A DNA stretch of 64,000 bases from Dechloromonas sp. H13 (GTDB lineage: Bacteria > Pseudomonadota > Gammaproteobacteria > Burkholderiales > Rhodocyclaceae): NCBI RefSeq assembly GCF_009469615.1, contig NZ_SSXX01000002.1, positions 393,501-457,500 on the forward strand, read 5' to 3'. Position numbers and translations under genes: made by a program. Under the pieces are notes generated by a model. The model saw only the letters and a list, made by a program, of their open reading frames with translations. It had not been told where the DNA came from and did no database searches. Below, piece by piece: positions 6,721 through 56,560 of the stretch (position 1 is its first letter; each line of letters starts with the position of its first letter).

Positions 6721-6737
6721 TAGCAAGGGCGGTGCCA
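6721..6737 (-). promoter_or_regulatory. Sigma-54 promoter of the nifV operon
   Basis: On the reverse strand TGGCAC-CGCCC-TTGCTA, an excellent match to the -24/-12 consensus (GG-N10-GC). It lies 24 bp upstream of the nifV start, so the transcript leader is short. Confidence 0.88.
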
Positions 6738-6798
6738 GCGACCAAGTCATTGAAAAATAAAGGTTCATGATTGCGCCGGTGCGGCCGTGTCGGCTTCG

Positions 6799-6814
6799 TG
6801 TCGCGAACCTGACA
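6799..6814. promoter_or_regulatory. NifA upstream activator site for nifV
   Basis: TGTCGCGAACCTGACA fits TGT-N10-ACA exactly and is about 70 bp upstream of the -24 element of the nifV promoter, the normal place for a NifA enhancer. It also lies 66 bp before the rightward aldolase gene. Confidence 0.8.
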
Positions 6815-29883: not shown

Positions 29884-29981
29884 GGTCGACTGGCAGACCT
29901 CAAGCGATTGAATTTTCGATGAAAATTGAAAAACAGCCGGCGCTGGTCGGCATGTCGGCATCCGACAATTCCCCTACACCT

Positions 29982-29997
29982 TGTAGGGGTGACGACA
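29982..29997. promoter_or_regulatory. NifA upstream activator site for nifH
   Basis: TGTAGGGGTGACGACA fits TGT-N10-ACA and is about 100 bp upstream of the -24 element. Its ACA half is also the first three bases of the tandem repeat that follows. A weaker TGT-N9-ACA lies at 29953-29967. Confidence 0.75.
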
Positions 29998-30198
29998 ACG
30001 CGGCGAGCGCAAGCGAGACAAAGCCGTACTCGGGAGACGACAGTCTCCTCTCTAACTTGTTGCGAGGCGGCCGCGGGCTTGAGACCGTGGCAACTCACAA
30101 CGCGGCGAGCGCAAGCGAGACAAAACCCTGCTCAGGAGACGACAGTCTCCTCTCTGACTCCTTACGCAGCAGCCACGGGCTTCCGGCCGTGGCAGCGC
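29995..30198 (+). repeat. Two in-frame 102-bp tandem repeats before draT
   Basis: Units 29995-30096 and 30097-30198, with the first bases of a third unit at 30199. Each unit has GGAGAC-GACA-GTCTCC (30033-30048 and 30135-30150) and a second hairpin CCRCGG-8 nt-CCGTGG. In the second hairpin the G of copy 1 becomes A in copy 2 opposite the same T, so pairing is kept (G-U versus A-U). 102 is a multiple of three and both units are open in the draT frame. Confidence 0.82.
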
Positions 30199-31007
30199 AC
30201 AAGGCGTCGCTACCGCGCGAGGCGCGCCTGCCGATCAACCGCTGCAACCTGCCGGCCGTCGTGCTGGGCAGCCTGACCTACCAGCGGCATCCCTCGCCGC
30301 TGATGCTCGACGGCGTCGCCGAACTCCACGGCGATCTCTTCCGCCGCCTGCAGGCCGCCGCGCCGGAGGCGCGTGCGGCGGTGTTCCGCGATTACCTGAC
30401 CGTGCATTTCCGGCTCGAACGGCCGGAGGAGATGGGCTTCACCGGGCAGAAGAAAAGCCGGGCCAAGGCCAATTACGTGCGCATGATCCGCGGCTGGAGC
30501 TTCGATTCGGACAGCCGCGAGGGCGCCGTGCTCAAGGGCTGGGTCGAGTCGCGCTTCGGCCTGATGCCCCGGCACCACGGCCAGCCGCTGCGCGATCCGT
30601 CGGGCGCGGCCTACCGGCGCTACCTGGAAATGCGTTCGCAGGGCCTCTACGGCACCAACGCGCTGGAGGCCCAGCTCGACCTGGTCTATGCCTTCTGCCA
30701 GCAGGAACTGGCGCTGCGCCACCCGGGCGCCCGCCACGTCACCCTCTATCGCGGCGTCAATCGCATGGCCGACCACGAGGTGCTGGCGAAGGGCGACGGC
30801 GGACACCACGTCATCCTGCTCAACAACATCAGCTCGTTCACCCACAGCCGCGAGCGTGCCTGCGAATTCGGCGACTACATCCTTGCGGTCGACGTCCCGC
30901 TGAGCAAGATTTTCTTCCACTGCGGCCTGCTGCCCGGCGTGCTGCAGGGCGAGGACGAATTCCTCGTCATCGGCGGCGTCGTCGATGTCACCCTGTCTAC
31001 GCTGTGA
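30189..31007 (+). CDS. draT: NAD+-dinitrogen-reductase ADP-D-ribosyltransferase DraT
   Basis: 272 aa from a GTG at 30189. The DraT start block LPINRCNLPAVVLGSLTYQR is followed by EEMGFTGQKKSRAKANYVRM, HVTLYRGVNRMADHEVLAKG and NNISSFTHSRERACEFGDYI, with Glu in the catalytic region. It ADP-ribosylates NifH and switches nitrogenase off. The frame stays open back to an ATG at 29919 (362 aa), but the extra part is only the tandem repeats and lies over the nifH control region, so a start near 30189 fits DraT length better. The true start is uncertain. Confidence 0.87.
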   Translation: MAAHKASLPREARLPINRCNLPAVVLGSLTYQRHPSPLMLDGVAELHGDLFRRLQAAAPEARAAVFRDYLTVHFRLERPEEMGFTGQKKSRAKANYVRMIRGWSFDSDSREGAVLKGWVESRFGLMPRHHGQPLRDPSGAAYRRYLEMRSQGLYGTNALEAQLDLVYAFCQQELALRHPGARHVTLYRGVNRMADHEVLAKGDGGHHVILLNNISSFTHSRERACEFGDYILAVDVPLSKIFFHCGLLPGVLQGEDEFLVIGGVVDVTLSTL

Positions 31008-31048
31008 GTGTCGCGCCGACCCACATTCTGCTAACGGGAGTCATGCCC

Positions 31049-31423
31049 ATGCGCCATTCCCTGCTTCCGGCGCTCGTTGCGTCGTCCTTTCTCTTTCTGG
31101 CGGCCTGTGCGAGCCCGCCCAAAGAGCAGCCGCCGGCGGCCGGCAATCCACAGCTCGAACTGAAGCTGGCGAGCGGCACCTACAACTGCGAACAGCGGGT
31201 GCGCATCCAGGTCAGGCGCGAAGTCCGCGACAAGGTGAATTACCGCATCAATCTCGTCTGGAACGGCGACACCTACCGCCTTGAACGCGATCCTTCCCAT
31301 TCGGGCCTGCCGCGCTTCGAGGACAGCGCCAGCGGCCTGGTGTGGATCGACCTGCCGTGGAAGAGCATGCTGCTCGACGGCAAGACCGGCAAGCCGCTGG
31401 TCAACGAGTGCCGCCCGGCCTGA
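31049..31423 (+). CDS. Small putative lipoprotein
   Basis: 124 aa. MRHSLLPALVASSFLFLAAC has a lipobox (LAAC). The mature part (LELKLASGTYNCEQRVRIQV, YRINLVWNGDTYRLERDPSH) is beta-rich, with two further cysteines that could pair, as in MliC-like lysozyme inhibitor domains. This is only a resemblance. GGGAG lies 8 bp before the ATG at 31049. It follows draT by 41 bp and may be co-transcribed. Confidence 0.65.
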   Translation: MRHSLLPALVASSFLFLAACASPPKEQPPAAGNPQLELKLASGTYNCEQRVRIQVRREVRDKVNYRINLVWNGDTYRLERDPSHSGLPRFEDSASGLVWIDLPWKSMLLDGKTGKPLVNECRPA

Positions 31424-31441
31424 GGGGCGTGAGGCGGGCGC

Positions 31442-32590
31442 TCAGCGATCGGCGTCCCTGACGTCCGCTGCTGCAGCGCCGGTTTCGTCGTCCGGCACGG
31501 GCGGCAGGTCGGGTAGCGGGGATTCCTGTGGTGCCGCCGGCAGTTCGAGCGGCAGGGTTTCGGGCCGGGCCAGGCCTCCCTCGATCTGTCCGGCGATGTG
31601 ATCGACCGCTGCCATGACGCTGCTGGCGGGGTCTTCCGTCAGCGTGCGCCACTGCTCGTCGAGCGCCGCCGCCAGGTTCTCGCGGAGCTGCGCTTCCAGC
31701 GCCGGCCGCTCGCTTTCGTGCGCCAGCGCGCCGAAGCCGGCGGCACCCAGTGAAATCACCATGCCGGCAACGCCGCCGACCGCTGCCGCGGCAGCGCTGG
31801 CGCCGCCGCTGACGGCGAGCCTGGACATCATTTTTTCGCTGGCCTGTTCGGCCGCCGGCGAGATGCGGGCGCCCGACGGACCGGTGCCGGCCTCGCCGGC
31901 CGCCTTGCGGATCCGGGCGTTCAGTGCCGCGTAGGCCGGCAGCCGGGCGAGCGGATCGGCATCGACGAGTTCACGCAGCGAAGCGCCCGGCGCGCCCGGC
32001 GATGGCGGCGCGATTGCCGGAATGTCGGCGAGCCGGCGGTCGAACTGGTCGCGCGGCACACCGTGGCGGCGCGGGATGGCCTGCAACTGCTCGCCGAGCA
32101 GGCGCACGTAGAGGGTCGTCGTCCGGTCCCTGACCGCCGCAGGATCTATCTCCCGGGCGACCGGCGCCAAGACGCGCCCGTCGTATTGTTCCTGCAGGTA
32201 GGCGGCCAGTCGTCGCACGGCGGGGTCGTTGCCCTCGCCGTCGTTGAGCTTGTACCAGGCGACCCGGATCGCCAGCCATTGCCGGGTCCAGTAGCCGGTG
32301 AGCCAGGGAATGAAGTCCGACTCGGTGCGCTGGTGAACGAGTTCCCGCCAGCGCGCCATGAAGCCGTGCGCGTAATTGCGTGCCGGTTCACGCGCCGCCT
32401 GCGACGCGGCGACGATGTCGCCGTCGACCTGCAGCCAGGTATCGTCGGCGACCTGCACCGGCGGCGGTCCGGGCGCCCGCTCCGGCGTGGCGCAGCCGGC
32501 CGTCGCCAGCAACAGGGCGATGCCGAGGGCGCGCAGGATCGAGGCCGTGCGCCCGCCAGCCGGGTTCGCCGGCACCCGCTTGCCAGCCAT
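31442..32590 (-). CDS. Putative lipoprotein of unknown function
   Basis: 382 aa from ATG 32590 (32596 also possible). LRALGIALLLATAGC is a lipobox signal. The mature part is helical and Arg-rich. It has a Gly/Ala-rich hydrophobic stretch at about 265-295 (AVGGVAGMVISLGAAGFGAL) that could insert in a membrane, and a Pro-rich C-terminus. No family is recognised. It is convergent with the 31049 gene and divergent from the DUF3313 gene, so it is probably unrelated to nif. Confidence 0.65.
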   Translation of the reverse strand: MAGKRVPANPAGGRTASILRALGIALLLATAGCATPERAPGPPPVQVADDTWLQVDGDIVAASQAAREPARNYAHGFMARWRELVHQRTESDFIPWLTGYWTRQWLAIRVAWYKLNDGEGNDPAVRRLAAYLQEQYDGRVLAPVAREIDPAAVRDRTTTLYVRLLGEQLQAIPRRHGVPRDQFDRRLADIPAIAPPSPGAPGASLRELVDADPLARLPAYAALNARIRKAAGEAGTGPSGARISPAAEQASEKMMSRLAVSGGASAAAAAVGGVAGMVISLGAAGFGALAHESERPALEAQLRENLAAALDEQWRTLTEDPASSVMAAVDHIAGQIEGGLARPETLPLELPAAPQESPLPDLPPVPDDETGAAAADVRDADR

Positions 32591-32799
32591 GTTCATTCTT
32601 CCATCCTGGTCATCATCTGACCGCCATCGTCGAATGCGGGCGGGGATGCCCGATGCGTCATTATTCATCTTTGCCGGTCGCGGCGACAGCACTGCCGGCG
32701 GGCGATGCGATAAACTGCATCCCGGCCGTGCCGATGACAACCGGCTAGCGTGGCGGGGCGGCGATAGCGGATGACCAACAGACGAAACAAGGAAACGTG

Positions 32800-33636
32800 A
32801 TGATCATGACCATCAGGAAAAATACGGGGGCGGCTGCCGTGCGCGGTTTGGGTGTTTGTCTCGTGGCCGGCGCGGCGACGCTGTTCGCCGGCTGCCAGGC
32901 CTACGACGCCGCGCTGGGCAGCGGCACCAGCGTGACGGCGACCGACAGCGCGCGCCTGACGAAAAGCGGGTTTCTGAGCGACTACGCGCGGCTCAAGGCC
33001 AATCCGGCAGCGGGCGGCATCGAGTGCTGGCGCGACGCGCGCCTCGACGCCAAAAAATTCGACAAGGCGATGATCTCGCGCATCGTCGTCTCGCTCGTGC
33101 CGCCGAAGAGCGGCGAAGCCGGCGAGCAGCCGATGATCGATCCGAACGATCTCAAGACGCTGACCGACTACTTCCACGATTCGCTGACCAAAGCCCTCAA
33201 GCCGCAGATGCCGGTCGTCGACAAGGCGGGGCCAGGGGTCGTCGTGATCCGCATCGCGCTGACCAATCTGGTGCCGACCAAGGTGGCCGACAGCCTGACC
33301 GGGACCCTCGTTCCGTACGCCTTCATCGCCGAAGCGGGGTCCGGCGTGGCCACCGGCCGTCCGGCGGGGTCGACCCCTTACCTGGGCGAAACCGCGATGG
33401 AGATGCAATTCCGCGACGGTGCGAACGGCGCGATTCTCGCCGAATGTCGCGATACCCAGATCGGCCGCAAGTACGCCGCCGATGTCGATGCCGGCGCGGT
33501 CGGCACGGCGCAGACCTGGGCCAGCGGCTACATGAACTCGTTCCAGGCGTGGTCGTATGCCAAGAACGCCTTCGACAAGTGGTCGATGCTGGTCGCCAAA
33601 CGCTTCGCCGAACTGCGCGGGGTCGCGGTCAACTAG
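32800..33636 (+). CDS. DUF3313-like lipoprotein
   Basis: 278 aa. A signal with a lipobox (VCLVAGAATLFAGC) is followed by SGFLSDYARLKANPAAGG, RIVVSLVPPKSGEAGEQPMI and ETAMEMQFRDGANGAILAE, matching DUF3313 outer-membrane-type lipoproteins. Function unknown. AAGGAAACG precedes the ATG at 32800; a GTG at 32797 is in the same frame. The 200-bp divergent gap before it holds no recognised operator. Confidence 0.75.
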   Translation: MIMTIRKNTGAAAVRGLGVCLVAGAATLFAGCQAYDAALGSGTSVTATDSARLTKSGFLSDYARLKANPAAGGIECWRDARLDAKKFDKAMISRIVVSLVPPKSGEAGEQPMIDPNDLKTLTDYFHDSLTKALKPQMPVVDKAGPGVVVIRIALTNLVPTKVADSLTGTLVPYAFIAEAGSGVATGRPAGSTPYLGETAMEMQFRDGANGAILAECRDTQIGRKYAADVDAGAVGTAQTWASGYMNSFQAWSYAKNAFDKWSMLVAKRFAELRGVAVN

Positions 33637-33742: not shown

Positions 33743-33758
33743 TGTCGTAAACACGACA
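33743..33758. promoter_or_regulatory. NifA upstream activator site for the SIR2 operon
   Basis: TGTCGTAAACACGACA is a TGT-N10-ACA site and a perfect TGTCGT/ACGACA palindrome. It lies 52 bp upstream of the candidate -24 element. Confidence 0.75.
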
Positions 33759-33808
33759 ATCGCGCGGCGCTGCGTCCGGAAAGGCGCGCCGCTGCGTCCT
33801 TCGGCGCC

Positions 33809-33824
33809 GGGCGTGGAATTTGCT
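33809..33824 (+). promoter_or_regulatory. Candidate sigma-54 promoter of the SIR2 operon
   Basis: GGGCGTGGAATTTGCT: GG (33810-33811), N10, GC (33822-33823), with a perfect TTTGCT -12 box but a weaker -24 box than the other nif promoters. It is 35 bp before the first gene. Confidence 0.6.
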
Positions 33825-33858
33825 GTGGAGGGGGGAGACCCACTTCAGAGCAAAAGAC

Positions 33859-34695
33859 ATGACCCCAGAACTTCGCGCAAAACTGCTGGCCGGCCTCAAG
33901 GACGGCAGCATCGTTCCCTATCTCGGCCCGGGCGTGCTGGCCGACGTCAAGAATGTCGCGACCGGCGCGCCGATTCCCGCCGACAGCGATTCGCTGATCT
34001 ACGCGATGAACGACGGCAAGCCGATGGCGCCCAAGCTGATGTACGAATTTCCGCGCGCGGCGATGAACGTCGAATTGAAGCGCGGGCGGACGACGGTGAC
34101 CAAGTTCCTGACCCGCGTCTACGGCGAGACGCAATGGACGCGTGCTGCGGTCCACGACTGGCTGAAGGCGATTTCGCCGCATTACGTCATCGACATCAAC
34201 CGCGACACGCAGCTGCAGGATTCCTACGCCGACCTGCCGCACAACCTGATCGTCGGCATCGCCCGCATCGGCGGCACCGATTTCCGCTACAAGCTGTATT
34301 TCTGGGACGGCGCCGCCTACCGGAAGACCGAGGTGATCAACCCGGCGCTGCCTATCCTGTTCAAGCCGATGGGCACGCCGAAGCCGGAGGCCGTCTATAT
34401 CGCCTCCGATGCCGACTACGTCGATTTCATCACCGAGCTGATGGGCGGCTTCTCGATCCCGCCGGAAATCAAGGAATTGCGCAAGGGCAAGCAGTACCTG
34501 CTGCTGGGCATGCGCCTGAACCGCGACACCGAGCGCATGGTCATGGCCGACATGATCTACAGCGCCGCCGAGCCGGCCGGCTGGGTGTTCATCAGCGAGC
34601 CGACGGAAAAGGAAAGGCGCTACTGCAGGAAGATCGGCCTCGAGATCATCGACGCCGACATTTTCGAATTCATCGGTGCCGCGCAGCCGGCCTGA
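33859..34695 (+). CDS. SIR2-like protein of a NifA-controlled operon
   Basis: 278 aa. The N-terminus LLAGLKDGSIVPYLGPGVLA resembles the nucleotide-binding start of SIR2-like (DUF4917/SIR2_2-type) proteins. ISPHYVIDINRDTQLQDSYA is the segment holding the second conserved SIR2-type motif. Canonical sirtuin zinc cysteines are not seen. A SIR2-like protein could use or sense NAD+, the same substrate as DraT. It heads the operon with the unknown gene at 34724, hemerythrin and Rieske genes. The ATG at 33859 is used; the ribosome site is weak. Activity is inferred only. Confidence 0.72.
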   Translation: MTPELRAKLLAGLKDGSIVPYLGPGVLADVKNVATGAPIPADSDSLIYAMNDGKPMAPKLMYEFPRAAMNVELKRGRTTVTKFLTRVYGETQWTRAAVHDWLKAISPHYVIDINRDTQLQDSYADLPHNLIVGIARIGGTDFRYKLYFWDGAAYRKTEVINPALPILFKPMGTPKPEAVYIASDADYVDFITELMGGFSIPPEIKELRKGKQYLLLGMRLNRDTERMVMADMIYSAAEPAGWVFISEPTEKERRYCRKIGLEIIDADIFEFIGAAQPA

Positions 34696-34723
34696 ACCAG
34701 TTCATAAAACGGGAGGAAAAACC

Positions 34724-35281
34724 ATGTTGTTGAATCGCTACGAACCCTATTTCTTTAACTCGAATTTCCGCGAAGCGGCCAGCGAGGCCGGCTGGGAAGG
34801 CTATCGCGGCGAACTGGTGGTCATTGAGGGGGAAGTCGCCGATGACCAGGGCCGCCGCAAGCCGCCCCATGCGCTGTTCAAGCAGGCCACCGTGCTCGCC
34901 CAGGGCGACGAGCTCAAGCTCATCTCCGGTTCGCTGGAGGAGTTGCAGCACTGGCCGCACTTCATGGAAAAGTTCGGGGCCGACTTCACGCCGGCCACCA
35001 TCGCCGTCATGTTCACGGTCAACATTCCCAAGCCCTTCGTGTCGACCATCAACGGCGCCACCGTCGTCTTCATCCCGCTGACCGAAGGCCTGTGCTGGAA
35101 TGAGCTGATCGACCTGGCGGCGCTGGAAAAGGGCGATTTCAAGGGGCAGGGGGCCGCCGACAAGATCGTCACCGTCTTCAACGCCTTGAAGGGCAACAAG
35201 TACAAATATCCGGAAGTGTCGGTCGAGGAAGCGCTGAAGACCACCAACAACGCCAAGCGCGAAGTGCACGGCGCGGTCTGA
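34724..35281 (+). CDS. Unknown protein of the SIR2/hemerythrin operon
   Basis: 185 aa, soluble. MLLNRYEPYFFNSNFREAAS, then a beta-rich region (LKLISGSLEELQHWPHFMEK, TIAVMFTVNIPKPFVSTING). No cofactor motif is evident. GGGAGGAAAAACC before the ATG is a strong ribosome site. Its stop overlaps the hemerythrin start by one base. I do not recognise a family. Confidence 0.72.
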   Translation: MLLNRYEPYFFNSNFREAASEAGWEGYRGELVVIEGEVADDQGRRKPPHALFKQATVLAQGDELKLISGSLEELQHWPHFMEKFGADFTPATIAVMFTVNIPKPFVSTINGATVVFIPLTEGLCWNELIDLAALEKGDFKGQGAADKIVTVFNALKGNKYKYPEVSVEEALKTTNNAKREVHGAV

Positions 35282-35655
35282 TGCCCTGGGGCGAACGTTA
35301 TGCGCTCGGAGTGGCCGAGATGGACGCCACCCACCGGGAATTCGTCGAACTGGCCGATGCCCTGCTGCTGGCCGGCGACGACGAGTTCCCGGCCCTCTTC
35401 GCGCAGCTGGCCGAGCATACCCGCCGGCATTTCGAGGACGAGGGCAGGCTGATGAAAAGCTGCCGCTTTCCGGCGATCGGCGAACACCACAGCGAGCACC
35501 TGCGGGTGCTCGGCGAGCTGGCCCATTTCGGGCGCGGCGTCGCCGCCGGCCGCCTAGGCCTGGCGCGCAAGTACGTCATGGGCCTGCCAGACTGGTTCGC
35601 GACCCATCTCGCGACCATGGATGCGGCGCTCGCCGGCTGCCTGAAGCGCGGCTGA
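35281..35655 (+). CDS. Bacteriohemerythrin
   Basis: 124 aa. All di-iron ligands of the hemerythrin four-helix bundle are visible: His in MDATHREF, H-x3-E in RRHFEDE, H-x3-H in EHHSEHLR and H-x4-D in HLATMD. It binds O2 reversibly and may scavenge it or deliver it to respiration near nitrogenase. It is the third gene of the NifA-controlled SIR2 operon, coupled to the gene before it. Confidence 0.9.
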   Translation: MPWGERYALGVAEMDATHREFVELADALLLAGDDEFPALFAQLAEHTRRHFEDEGRLMKSCRFPAIGEHHSEHLRVLGELAHFGRGVAAGRLGLARKYVMGLPDWFATHLATMDAALAGCLKRG

Positions 35656-35658
35656 ACG

Positions 35659-36033
35659 ATGCAGCAGCCGCAGCCGCCGAAGTTTCCCGTCTGTCCCAGC
35701 GCCGCCCTGGCCGACGGTCAGCATCGCAAGCTGACGATGGTTTTCGAGGGGCGCAAGGAGGAATGCCTGCTCCTGCGCTTCGACGGCCGGGTCTATGCCT
35801 ACCTCAACCGCTGCGTCCATATGCCGCCCCGGCTCGACTGCGAGGAGGCACGGATTTTCGACGCGACGGGGCGCCATTTGCGCTGCTCGATGCACGGCAT
35901 CGTCTACCAGCCGCAGACTGGCGCCTCGCTCAGCGCCATGTGCGAGGGCGAGCGCCTGCGCAGCGTCGGTGCCTATGAGGAGGAAGGGGAGGTCGGCATC
36001 GCCGACTTCCGGGTTGCCGCTGCCGGCAATTAG
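35659..36033 (+). CDS. Rieske [2Fe-2S] protein
   Basis: 124 aa. The Rieske motifs CVHMPPRL (C-x-H) and CSMHGIVYQPQTGA (C-x2-H) bind one 2Fe-2S cluster. It is the soluble, small type, without a membrane anchor, as found in dioxygenase ferredoxins and near nif genes. It would serve electron transfer. It is the last gene of the operon and converges with draG 6 bp away. Confidence 0.9.
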   Translation: MQQPQPPKFPVCPSAALADGQHRKLTMVFEGRKEECLLLRFDGRVYAYLNRCVHMPPRLDCEEARIFDATGRHLRCSMHGIVYQPQTGASLSAMCEGERLRSVGAYEEEGEVGIADFRVAAAGN

Positions 36034-36039
36034 ATCGGC

Positions 36040-36993
36040 TCAGCCCCCGGCCAGTTGCAGCAGGGCGGCGGCCTGCCGTTCGCAGGCCTGGTGCGTTGCC
36101 GGGTCGAGGGCGCGCAGCCAGCGCCGCGGGATGGCGTCGAGGCCGTAGCGGGCGCCGGCCAGCATGCCGGCGATGGCGCCGGTGGTGTCGGCGTCGCCGC
36201 CGCGGTTGACGACGTCGACCAGGCAGTCCTCGAACGAGGCGTTGGCGAAGAAGGCCTGGAACACCGCCTGGATGGTTTCGACGACATAGCCGCTCGGGTT
36301 GTCGCGACGCTTCCGGTCGTAGGCGAAAACCGGGTGACGGCGGACCAGTTCGGCGGCCCGCTCGCGCTGCACGGCGTCGGCGTCGCGGCCGGCGAGGAAG
36401 TCGGTCACCATGAAGACCAGCGTCTCGCAGGCGGCGTCCGAGAGCGCGTTGTGGTGGGTGACGTGGGCCTGGGCGCGGCTGGCAAAAACGGCCGTTTCAG
36501 GCGGTCGACCGTAGCAGGCGAGCGCCACGGGCAGGACGCGCATCGCCGCGCCGTTGCCGGCATCGTGCTCGGAAGCGGGTGCTTCCGGGTTGCCGGTCTT
36601 GCGGAACTGGATCAGGTTGCGGCGCACGGTGTTGCCGATGTCGACCGGCTTGCCGCGCATCCAGGCATCGAAGGCCTCGGCGGCAGCCGTCGCGTCAACG
36701 CAACCTTTGGCGAGGATGGATTCACCGAGCGCCAGCGACATCGTCGTGTCGTCGGTGACCTGGCCGGCCTTCAGGCGGAGCCAGCCACCACCGCTGATCT
36801 CGCGGTGCGAGCCGTGCTGGTGGCGGATCTCGCCGGGGGTCAGGAATTCGACGGTGGCGCCGAGGGCGTCGCCGATGGCGAGGCCGAGGTAGGCGGCGGT
36901 ACCTTTGGCCAAGTGTGGCAACTCCCACGGCGGCGGGCTGGCCCGGCGGCGGATCGGGGCATTGCGGGCGATCAGTTCTCCGGTCCAAAACAT
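36040..36993 (-). CDS. draG: ADP-ribosyl-[dinitrogen reductase] hydrolase DraG
   Basis: 317 aa. Binuclear Mn site motifs QVTDDTTMSLALGESIL (N-terminal) and VVNRGGDADTTGAIAGMLAG (C-terminal) are intact. It removes ADP-ribose from NifH and reverses DraT. The ATG at 36993 has AAGGA 9 bp upstream and overlaps nifQ by 22 bp; an ATG at 37011 is possible. draG is separated from draT by 5 kb and is the last gene of the nifB operon. A dispersed repeat is embedded in frame at 36481-36517. Confidence 0.92.
   Translation of the reverse strand: MFWTGELIARNAPIRRRASPPPWELPHLAKGTAAYLGLAIGDALGATVEFLTPGEIRHQHGSHREISGGGWLRLKAGQVTDDTTMSLALGESILAKGCVDATAAAEAFDAWMRGKPVDIGNTVRRNLIQFRKTGNPEAPASEHDAGNGAAMRVLPVALACYGRPPETAVFASRAQAHVTHHNALSDAACETLVFMVTDFLAGRDADAVQRERAAELVRRHPVFAYDRKRRDNPSGYVVETIQAVFQAFFANASFEDCLVDVVNRGGDADTTGAIAGMLAGARYGLDAIPRRWLRALDPATHQACERQAAALLQLAGG
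36481..36517 (-). repeat. Dispersed TGCGGTCGAC-type repeat, copy 7 (inside draG)
   Basis: Reverse strand CCTGCTACGGTCGACCGCC, then TGAAACGGCC and GTTTTTGCC. The core is one base off (TACGGTCGACC). It is read in frame as CYGRPPETAVFASR in DraG. Confidence 0.5.
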
Positions 36994-41853: not shown

Positions 41854-41870
41854 CAGCAATCGCTGTGCCA
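41854..41870 (-). promoter_or_regulatory. Sigma-54 promoter of the nifB operon
   Basis: Reverse strand TGGCAC-AGCGA-TTGCTG, a near-perfect -24/-12 element 36 bp before the nifB start codon. Confidence 0.88.
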
Positions 41871-41933
41871 GTTGATTTAGTTATTCAAAATCAGTTGGTT
41901 GCCGGATTTTCGGCAAGGCCGTGTCGGCCGTCT

Positions 41934-41949
41934 TGTCGGGAATGCGACA
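41934..41949. promoter_or_regulatory. NifA upstream activator site for nifB
   Basis: TGTCGGGAATGCGACA fits TGT-N10-ACA, about 70 bp upstream of the -24 element. It closely matches the nifF site (TGTCGGCTATGCGACA). From here to 42208 no gene is seen. Confidence 0.82.
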
Positions 41950-56484: not shown

Positions 56485-56501
56485 TTGCAAGGGTAGTGCC
56501 A
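56485..56501 (-). promoter_or_regulatory. Sigma-54 promoter of the nifF operon
   Basis: Reverse strand TGGCAC-TACCC-TTGCAA, a perfect -24/-12 element 29 bp before the ferredoxin gene. Confidence 0.9.
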
Positions 56502-56544
56502 GGTGTTAATTCAATGAATTCAGTGGCTTGTCCGATTGAGGCAT

Positions 56545-56560
56545 TGTCGGCTATGCGACA
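56545..56560. promoter_or_regulatory. NifA upstream activator site for the nifF operon
   Basis: TGTCGGCTATGCGACA fits TGT-N10-ACA, about 50 bp upstream of the -24 element. Confidence 0.82.

What the first reader, a model, noticed from the sequence alone, without database searches (positions are those of the whole stretch)
33743..36033. A NifA/sigma-54-type operon joining a SIR2-like protein, an unknown, a hemerythrin and a Rieske protein next to draT
The sequence shows a perfect palindromic TGT-N10-ACA site (TGTCGTAAACACGACA) 52 bp before a GG-N10-GC element and then four tightly spaced genes. A SIR2-like protein could bind or consume NAD+, which is the substrate of DraT encoded 3 kb away; hemerythrin and Rieske proteins handle O2 and electrons. 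Inference: the operon may sense the redox or NAD+ state and protect nitrogenase or tune its ADP-ribosylation. I know of no description of this combination, but the literature could not be searched.
Basis: partly seen in the sequence, partly recalled or inferred. Interest (0 to 1): 0.78.

Follow-up and report, generated by a model that had tools for sequence, protein, structure and literature searches.

The report
NifA-driven pnfA–hemerythrin operon
Next to the nitrogenase genes of an Azonexus/Dechloromonas-type bacterium lies a four-gene unit that looks switched on with nitrogen fixation; its first gene is probably the known accessory gene pnfA, here recognised as a degenerate relative of antiphage NAD-cleaving proteins, and the unit more likely helps nitrogenase work at low oxygen than tunes its ADP-ribosylation.

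Summary
Four tightly spaced genes (33859-36033) follow a NifA-type palindrome and a -24/-12 element. Each motif alone is near chance, but both are footprinted in 37 same-genus loci. Gene 1 is best read as the orthologue of PnfA (P. stutzeri PST1325), already published as NifA/sigma54-dependent, diazotroph-specific and needed for full nitrogenase activity at 0.5% O2. A draT-azo0536-dcrH1 order is in print for Azoarcus. New here: PnfA has the fold of ThsA/KomC/DSR2 Sir2 NADases (Z about 19), but 0 of 63 family members keep both catalytic Asn and His. Gene 2 belongs to an unnamed family seen only in NifH-positive genomes (15 of 43 against 0 of 354), with no PDB match found; its P. phymatum homologues show the two largest numeric drops in a published nifA-mutant table. 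The NAD+/DraT idea is weakly supported at best: 9 of 18 NifH+ genomes with the protein lack DraT (2 of 5 in its own subfamily), as does P. stutzeri A1501. Best reading: a NifA-controlled module supporting nitrogenase under oxygen or nitrate respiration, with PnfA a non-catalytic Sir2-fold protein.

The parts
33743..33758 (.). [quoted passage not shown]
   Evidence: present in 36 of 37 same-genus loci at -113 to -130; TGT and ACA columns 0.99 conserved
33809..33823 (+). sigma54-type -24/-12 promoter GGGCGTGGAATTTGC
   Evidence: GG and TTGC columns 100% conserved in the upstream alignment of 39
33859..34695 (+). gene 1: likely PnfA orthologue (degenerate Sir2/ThsA-type fold, 278 aa)
   Evidence: Pfam SIR2_2; model pLDDT 89.2; SeThsA Z 19.7, 243 aligned, rmsd 3.3; published PnfA
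34724..35281 (+). gene 2: nif-restricted protein without known family or fold (185 aa)
   Evidence: no Pfam/NCBIfam match; 15 of 43 NifH+ against 0 of 354 other genomes; model pLDDT 91.7, no PDB match found
35281..35655 (+). gene 3: bacteriohemerythrin-type protein (124 aa)
   Evidence: TIGR02481 73.9 bits, cut-off 51.75; H18, H50, E54, H69, H73, H109, D114 conserved in 37-38 of 38
35659..36033 (+). gene 4: Rieske [2Fe-2S] protein (124 aa)
   Evidence: PF00355; C52-x-H54 and C76-xx-H79 in 11 of 12
29919..31007 (+). draT ORF, neighbour (context)
   Evidence: PF07357 E 3e-99, residues 106-358; the true start may lie inside the ORF
36040..36993 (-). draG, convergent neighbour (context); start at 36993 chosen by eye
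   Evidence: TIGR02662 397.8 bits, cut-off 337; translation

Best explanation
This is the pnfA locus of an Azonexus/Dechloromonas-type diazotroph. NifA bound at 33743-33758 activates sigma54-RNA polymerase at 33809-33823, and pnfA, gene 2, a hemerythrin and a Rieske protein are made together when nitrogen is fixed (inferred from conserved sites; shown by experiment in print only for pnfA of P. stutzeri and, as expression loss in a nifA mutant, for gene-2 homologues of P. phymatum). The unit supports nitrogenase under microaerobic or nitrate-respiring conditions: hemerythrin as an O2 binder (buffer, carrier or sensor), Rieske as an electron carrier, PnfA as a protein that kept the Sir2/ThsA fold but not the catalytic pair and so more likely binds a ligand or partner than cleaves NAD+. 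It does not need DraT. Shown here: conservation, nif restriction, fold, absence of the catalytic pair. Inferred: orthology to PST1325, and the division of labour.
For: In 7 of 37 same-genus loci 2.6-4.3 kb separates pnfA from gene 2; there gene 2-hemerythrin has its own -24/-12 site in 7 of 7 and UAS in 6 of 7 (no shuffle control run there). All 38 relatives with NifH over cut-off carry a gene-1 family member, 34 the close form and 4 a distant one. Phylum sample: 18 of 43 NifH+ against 3 of 354 others, two of the three on nif contigs. Published: NifA and RpoN dependence, 23% activity at 0.5% O2, no defect without O2, loss of nitrate-supported fixation. Azoarcus azo0536 and dcrH1 induced on N2. 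Gene-2 homologues Bphy_7752/7807 at log2FC -11.54/-11.11 in nifA nodules (homology). Metal ligands intact. 0 of 63 have both catalytic Asn and His (columns checked against ThsA).
Against: No expression or phenotype data for this organism. PST1325 was not held, so orthology rests on published identities, copy number and synteny. Loss of nitrate-supported fixation occurred without O2, so the published phenotype is not purely oxygen protection, and the pnfA mutant still grows on nitrogen-free semisolid medium. Seven distant members keep the His (with Trp at the Asn place) and own PnfA keeps the Asn (N114), so residual chemistry is not excluded. Rieske is in only 10 of 37 same-genus cassettes. Of 19 neighbours of distant gene-2 homologues scanned, only 6 were redox or Fe-S families.
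Confidence: 0.64

Rival explanations
1. NAD+/redox-state sensor for DraT/DraG: PnfA binds or uses NAD+ or ADP-ribose and tunes NifH ADP-ribosylation.
For: draT directly before pnfA on the same strand (start-to-start 1.3 kb or less) in 13 of 80 named loci; draG convergent here; Sir2-type fold; DraT in 3 of 5 NifH+ genomes with the gene's own subfamily.
Against: 9 of 18 NifH+ genomes with the gene-1 family lack DraT. P. stutzeri A1501 has a pnfA phenotype and is reported to have no DraT/DraG. Overall association absent (p = 0.20, opposite direction). Catalytic pair never intact. Azoarcus draT is not N2-responsive while azo0536 is.
Confidence: 0.13
2. PnfA is an active Sir2-type deacetylase or NADase acting on nif proteins (a deacetylase role was proposed for Zymomonas ZMO1821 in PMC8600466).
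For: SIR2_2 match; fold Z about 19 to NADases; seven distant members keep His, and own keeps Asn.
Against: 0 of 63 keep both catalytic residues; own has Met171 in place of His; the second Gly and the Ser of the GAGxS motif (motif recalled) are not kept throughout; a single Cys in the protein, so no four-Cys zinc site of classical sirtuins.
Confidence: 0.12
3. A derelict or active antiphage Sir2 gene that happens to lie in a nif cluster.
For: Closest folds are antiphage Sir2 effectors.
Against: Nif-restricted distribution, NifA/sigma54 promoter, published nitrogenase phenotype.
Confidence: 0.03
4. The unit chiefly delivers electrons to nitrogenase (Rieske), with hemerythrin as a side function.
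For: Among 19 scanned neighbours of distant gene-2 homologues: Rieske (L120, L128), nitroreductase (L120), flavodoxin (L124), LRV-FeS (L121), Fe-S biosynthesis (L127); also Rieske in L217. The pnfA authors named electron transfer as one option.
Against: Rieske follows in only 10 of 37 same-genus cassettes, hemerythrin in 36 of 37; 13 of the 19 scanned neighbours were not redox or Fe-S families.
Confidence: 0.2

Closest known systems
PnfA (PST1325) of Pseudomonas stutzeri A1501, PMC2820453 (section 9 and passages read)
   Same: nif-linked, NifA/sigma54 promoter, homologues reported only in diazotrophs, 31.7 kDa; Dechloromonas aromatica homologue listed at 54%
   Different: there divergent from nifH in a strain reported to lack DraT/DraG; here followed by gene 2, hemerythrin and Rieske
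draT-azo0536-dcrH1 of Azoarcus olearius BH72, PMC8467165 (passages read)
   Same: draT, a gene in the pnfA position, then dcrH1 (hemerythrin-like by its name, compare DcrH); both downstream genes N2-induced; a second promoter after draT was suspected, which fits the site found here
   Different: gene 2 and Rieske are not mentioned in the passages seen
ThsA / KomC / DSR2 Sir2-domain NADases
   Same: fold over the full length, Z 18-20
   Different: catalytic His position is Met171; nif context; the protein is the Sir2 domain alone
Nif-cluster 'SIR2 family' proteins Rcc03262, PST1325, ZMO1821 (PMC6925177, PMC11332353, PMC8600466; passages read)
   Same: nif-cluster SIR2 annotation; Rcc03262 not found in the nifA1-nifA2 mutant
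   Different: Rcc03262 is listed next to NifT, the order of the second subfamily; these sequences were not compared here
Bphy_7752 / Bphy_7807 of Paraburkholderia phymatum, PMC8305402 (Table 1 read in full, rest in passages)
   Same: gene-2 family (188 and 187 bits), largest numeric drops in the nifA mutant table
   Different: beside nifH copies; no hemerythrin annotated in the stretches shown

Membership tests
PnfA | restricted to diazotrophs | tested here: met
   34 of 38 NifH+ relatives have the close form and 4 a distant one; phylum sample 18 of 43 NifH+ against 3 of 354 others, 2 of those 3 on nif contigs
PnfA | NifA UAS plus -24/-12 promoter | tested here: met
   expression itself not testable
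PnfA | sequence identity to PST1325 (about 50% or more) | not tested
   PST1325 sequence not held; the published 54% for D. aromatica is indirect
PnfA | linkage to nifH | tested here: met
   nifH 4 kb away in the window; within the held flanks in 43 of 80 named loci
PnfA | O2-dependent nitrogenase defect when deleted | not testable with these tools
   needs a mutant
ThsA/KomC/DSR2 Sir2 NADase | Sir2 fold over the domain | tested here: met
   Z 19.7 SeThsA, 243 residues, rmsd 3.3
ThsA/KomC/DSR2 Sir2 NADase | catalytic Asn and His pair | tested here: not met
   N114 kept, His position is M171; 0 of 63 members have both
classical sirtuin deacetylase | four-Cys zinc module | tested here: not met
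   one Cys in 278 aa
bacteriohemerythrin | di-iron ligands H/HxxxE/HxxxH/HxxxxD (pattern recalled) | tested here: met
   H18, H50-E54, H69-H73, H109-D114 in 37-38 of 38; below the NCBIfam bact_hemeryth cut-off (66.6 of 84) but above the hemerythrin domain cut-off
Rieske ferredoxin | CxH...CxxH (pattern recalled) | tested here: met
   C52/H54, C76/H79 in 11 of 12; the exception is a 59-aa copy
DraT/DraG regulatory partner | co-occurrence with DraT | tested here: not met
   9 of 18 NifH+ genomes with the gene-1 family are DraT+, against 18 of 25 without; own subfamily 3 of 5, too few to judge

The most novel reading that the evidence does not exclude
A Sir2 NADase domain of the antiphage type was recruited early into proteobacterial nif clusters, lost catalysis in two subfamilies by different halves of the catalytic pair, and became a nucleotide- or partner-binding protein (PnfA) that keeps nitrogenase active under O2 or nitrate; in Azonexus/Dechloromonas it is run together with a second nif-restricted protein of possibly new fold and a hemerythrin O2 binder as one NifA-driven oxygen-handling module.
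Probability: 0.4. Interest if true: 0.68.

Novelty: new variant of a known kind. Interest (0 to 1): 0.48.

Why it matters
How nitrogenase is kept working in cells that respire is a long-standing question. The locus names concrete, conserved, NifA-controlled parts: a pseudo-Sir2 protein with a published but unexplained nitrogenase phenotype, a hemerythrin, and a nif-restricted family without a name or known fold. It also questions the reading of these nif 'SIR2 family' genes as deacetylases and loosens their tie to DraT.

Tried and rejected
Active deacetylase/NADase: weakened by the catalytic-pair census. An early HMM alignment put the KomC His beside 'ydadG'; with His-keeping relatives placed it at KPHG, in register with the ThsA His, and I used that. 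The ThsA residue numbers (N112, H152) are recalled and agree with the aligned numbering; KomC H146 and DSR2 H171 mutants are named in PDB rows.

Gene 2: no Pfam/NCBIfam family; PDB sequence best E 0.015 to ABCD1, taken as chance; Foldseek none at E <= 0.001; VIA best Z 3.2. A new fold is possible, not shown.

Second-subfamily genes: no UAS in front of any of the 13 such genes scanned, and in 1 of 5 (L069, at -244); nifT lies upstream on the same strand within about 2.3 kb in 15 of 15 loci, so their promoter may lie further up. Rieske as a core member: rejected (10 of 37).

Literature searches. No held paper with nif + SIR2 + hemerythrin + Rieske, with draT + hemerythrin + operon, or with pnfA + sir2. 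pnfA + nitrogenase gives 2 held papers, one opened. Searches were seen as listings. The Oetjen 2009 paper is not held, so what it shows for azo0536 and dcrH1 is known only through PMC8467165. That azo0536 is the pnfA homologue is inferred from gene order.
Full report
WHAT IS THERE. Four genes lie head to tail at 33859-36033: a 278-aa SIR2_2-type protein, a 185-aa protein without family, a hemerythrin and a Rieske protein. Gaps are 28 nt, an overlap of 1 nt, and 3 nt; draG runs towards them with 6 nt between. draT lies 2.9 kb upstream with three other likely ORFs between.

IS IT MORE THAN CHANCE. By motif count alone, no: TGT-N10-ACA occurs 7 times in the window against 4.55 expected; the promoter element has three consensus mismatches, and sites of that quality occur by chance in 13.0 of 43 upstream regions. 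By conservation, yes. In 36 of 37 same-genus loci the UAS sits 113-130 bp before gene 1 (37 of all 43 loci examined, 2.1 expected). In the aligned upstream regions (39 rows) TGT and ACA columns average 0.99, the -24/-12 columns 0.93 and the other columns 0.54. In 7 of 37 same-genus loci 2.6-4.3 kb lies between gene 1 and gene 2 (an inverted 795-857-aa ORF in the four read); there gene 2 and hemerythrin have their own -24/-12 site (7 of 7) and UAS (6 of 7) (no shuffle control). Both halves thus kept NifA-type control when parted.

LINK TO NITROGEN FIXATION. Of 100 relatives, 38 have NifH over the family cut-off and all 38 have a gene-1 family member: 34 the close form, 4 (G073, G092, G093, G095) a 23-28% relative. 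Six of the other 62 also match: G001 and G026 have NifH fragments, G012, G021 and G088 have nif or dra genes on the same contig, G054 has only a short contig. In 397 genomes of the phylum, 18 of 43 NifH+ and 3 of 354 others have a full-length member; one NifH+ genome with only a fragment (G460) was counted as negative. Two of the three exceptions carry it in a nifA-nifB-nifZ-nifT-SIR2 order. Gene 2 is in 15 of 43 NifH+ and 0 of 354 others, and goes with gene 1 (11 shared, p = 0.0035).

DRAT. Among the 43 NifH+ genomes DraT is present in 9 of 18 with and 18 of 25 without the gene-1 family (p = 0.20). Restricted to the own subfamily it is 3 of 5. The NAD+/DraT link is thus not general; since draT directly precedes gene 1 in 13 of 80 named loci, a local link in some lineages is not excluded.

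WHAT GENE 1 IS. PMC2820453 (section 9 and passages read) describes PnfA (PST1325): NifA- and RpoN-dependent by qRT-PCR, homologues reported only in diazotrophs including Dechloromonas aromatica (54%), two subfamilies, non-polar mutant at 23% activity at 0.5% O2, similar to wild type without O2, unable to fix with nitrate as acceptor, complemented (data not shown), still Nif+ on semisolid medium. The paper states that DraT and DraG were not found in A1501. It saw partial likeness to UspA and ETF proteins and does not mention Sir2. Named Dechloromonas and Azonexus records are 83-88% identical to our protein, and each of the 100 relatives has at most one match, so orthology is the simplest reading, though PST1325 itself was not held.

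FOLD AND CATALYSIS. The model (31 sequences, pLDDT 89.2, pTM 0.89) matches SeThsA, KomC and DSR2 with Z 18-20 over about 240 residues. Sequence profiles place TTNxD at own 111-116 and the HG motif at FKPMG 168-172. Over 63 members (43 loci, own, and 20 phylum loci less one duplicate; some near-identical): Asn + Met 41, Asn + Leu 2, Trp + His 7, Trp + other 13, Asn + His 0. The two subfamilies thus lack different halves of the catalytic pair.

GENE 2. The model is confident (33 sequences, pLDDT 91.7) but no PDB match was found. Its P. phymatum homologues, Bphy_7752 beside nifH and Bphy_7807 beside a second nifH copy, have log2FC -11.54 and -11.11 in nifA-mutant nodules, the lowest numeric values of Table 1 in PMC8305402 (11 further rows are NA because no reads were left). 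In Methylococcus sp. EFPC2 it lies between a truncated globin and a Rieske protein. Of 19 neighbours of other distant homologues, 6 were redox or Fe-S families.

HEMERYTHRIN AND RIESKE. Ligands are intact. Hemerythrin follows gene 2 with a 1-nt overlap in 36 of 37 same-genus loci, Rieske follows in 10 of 37, and gene 2 follows gene 1 within 400 nt in 30 of 37. In the 80 named loci profiles find hemerythrin in 24 (one weak), gene 2 in 18 (two on the other strand) and Rieske in 5 (one far off on the other strand). PMC8467165 (passages) reports draT-azo0536-dcrH1 in Azoarcus, the last two N2-induced and draT not, and suspects a second promoter; the site conserved here before pnfA is a candidate for it.

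VERDICT. A real, conserved, NifA-type operon; a new variant of the known pnfA locus. Most likely an oxygen/respiration-handling module for nitrogenase with a non-catalytic Sir2-fold protein. The division of labour is inferred.

Noticed in passing
   Followed up: partly
L055, L058, L059, L061, L062, L065, L066: Between pnfA and gene 2 these seven same-genus loci carry 2.6-4.3 kb; in the four read it holds an inverted 795-857-aa ORF that looks by eye like a membrane sensor with a GGDEF-type domain.
   Followed up: partly
L104, L106-L119: The second gene-1 subfamily lies downstream of nifT (within about 2.3 kb, same strand) in 15 of 15 loci, also on R. etli p42d (nifA-nifB-4Fe4S-nifZ-nifT-SIR2).
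   Followed up: yes
31004-33636: Between draT and pnfA the window has three likely ORFs (a lipoprotein-like one, a 432-aa one on the other strand, a DUF3313 protein); loci where draT directly precedes pnfA have no room for them.
   Followed up: no
41855-41949, 56486-56560, 6722-6814: Other pairs of UAS and consensus -24/-12 sites in the window, one in front of nifB (start 41818).
   Followed up: no
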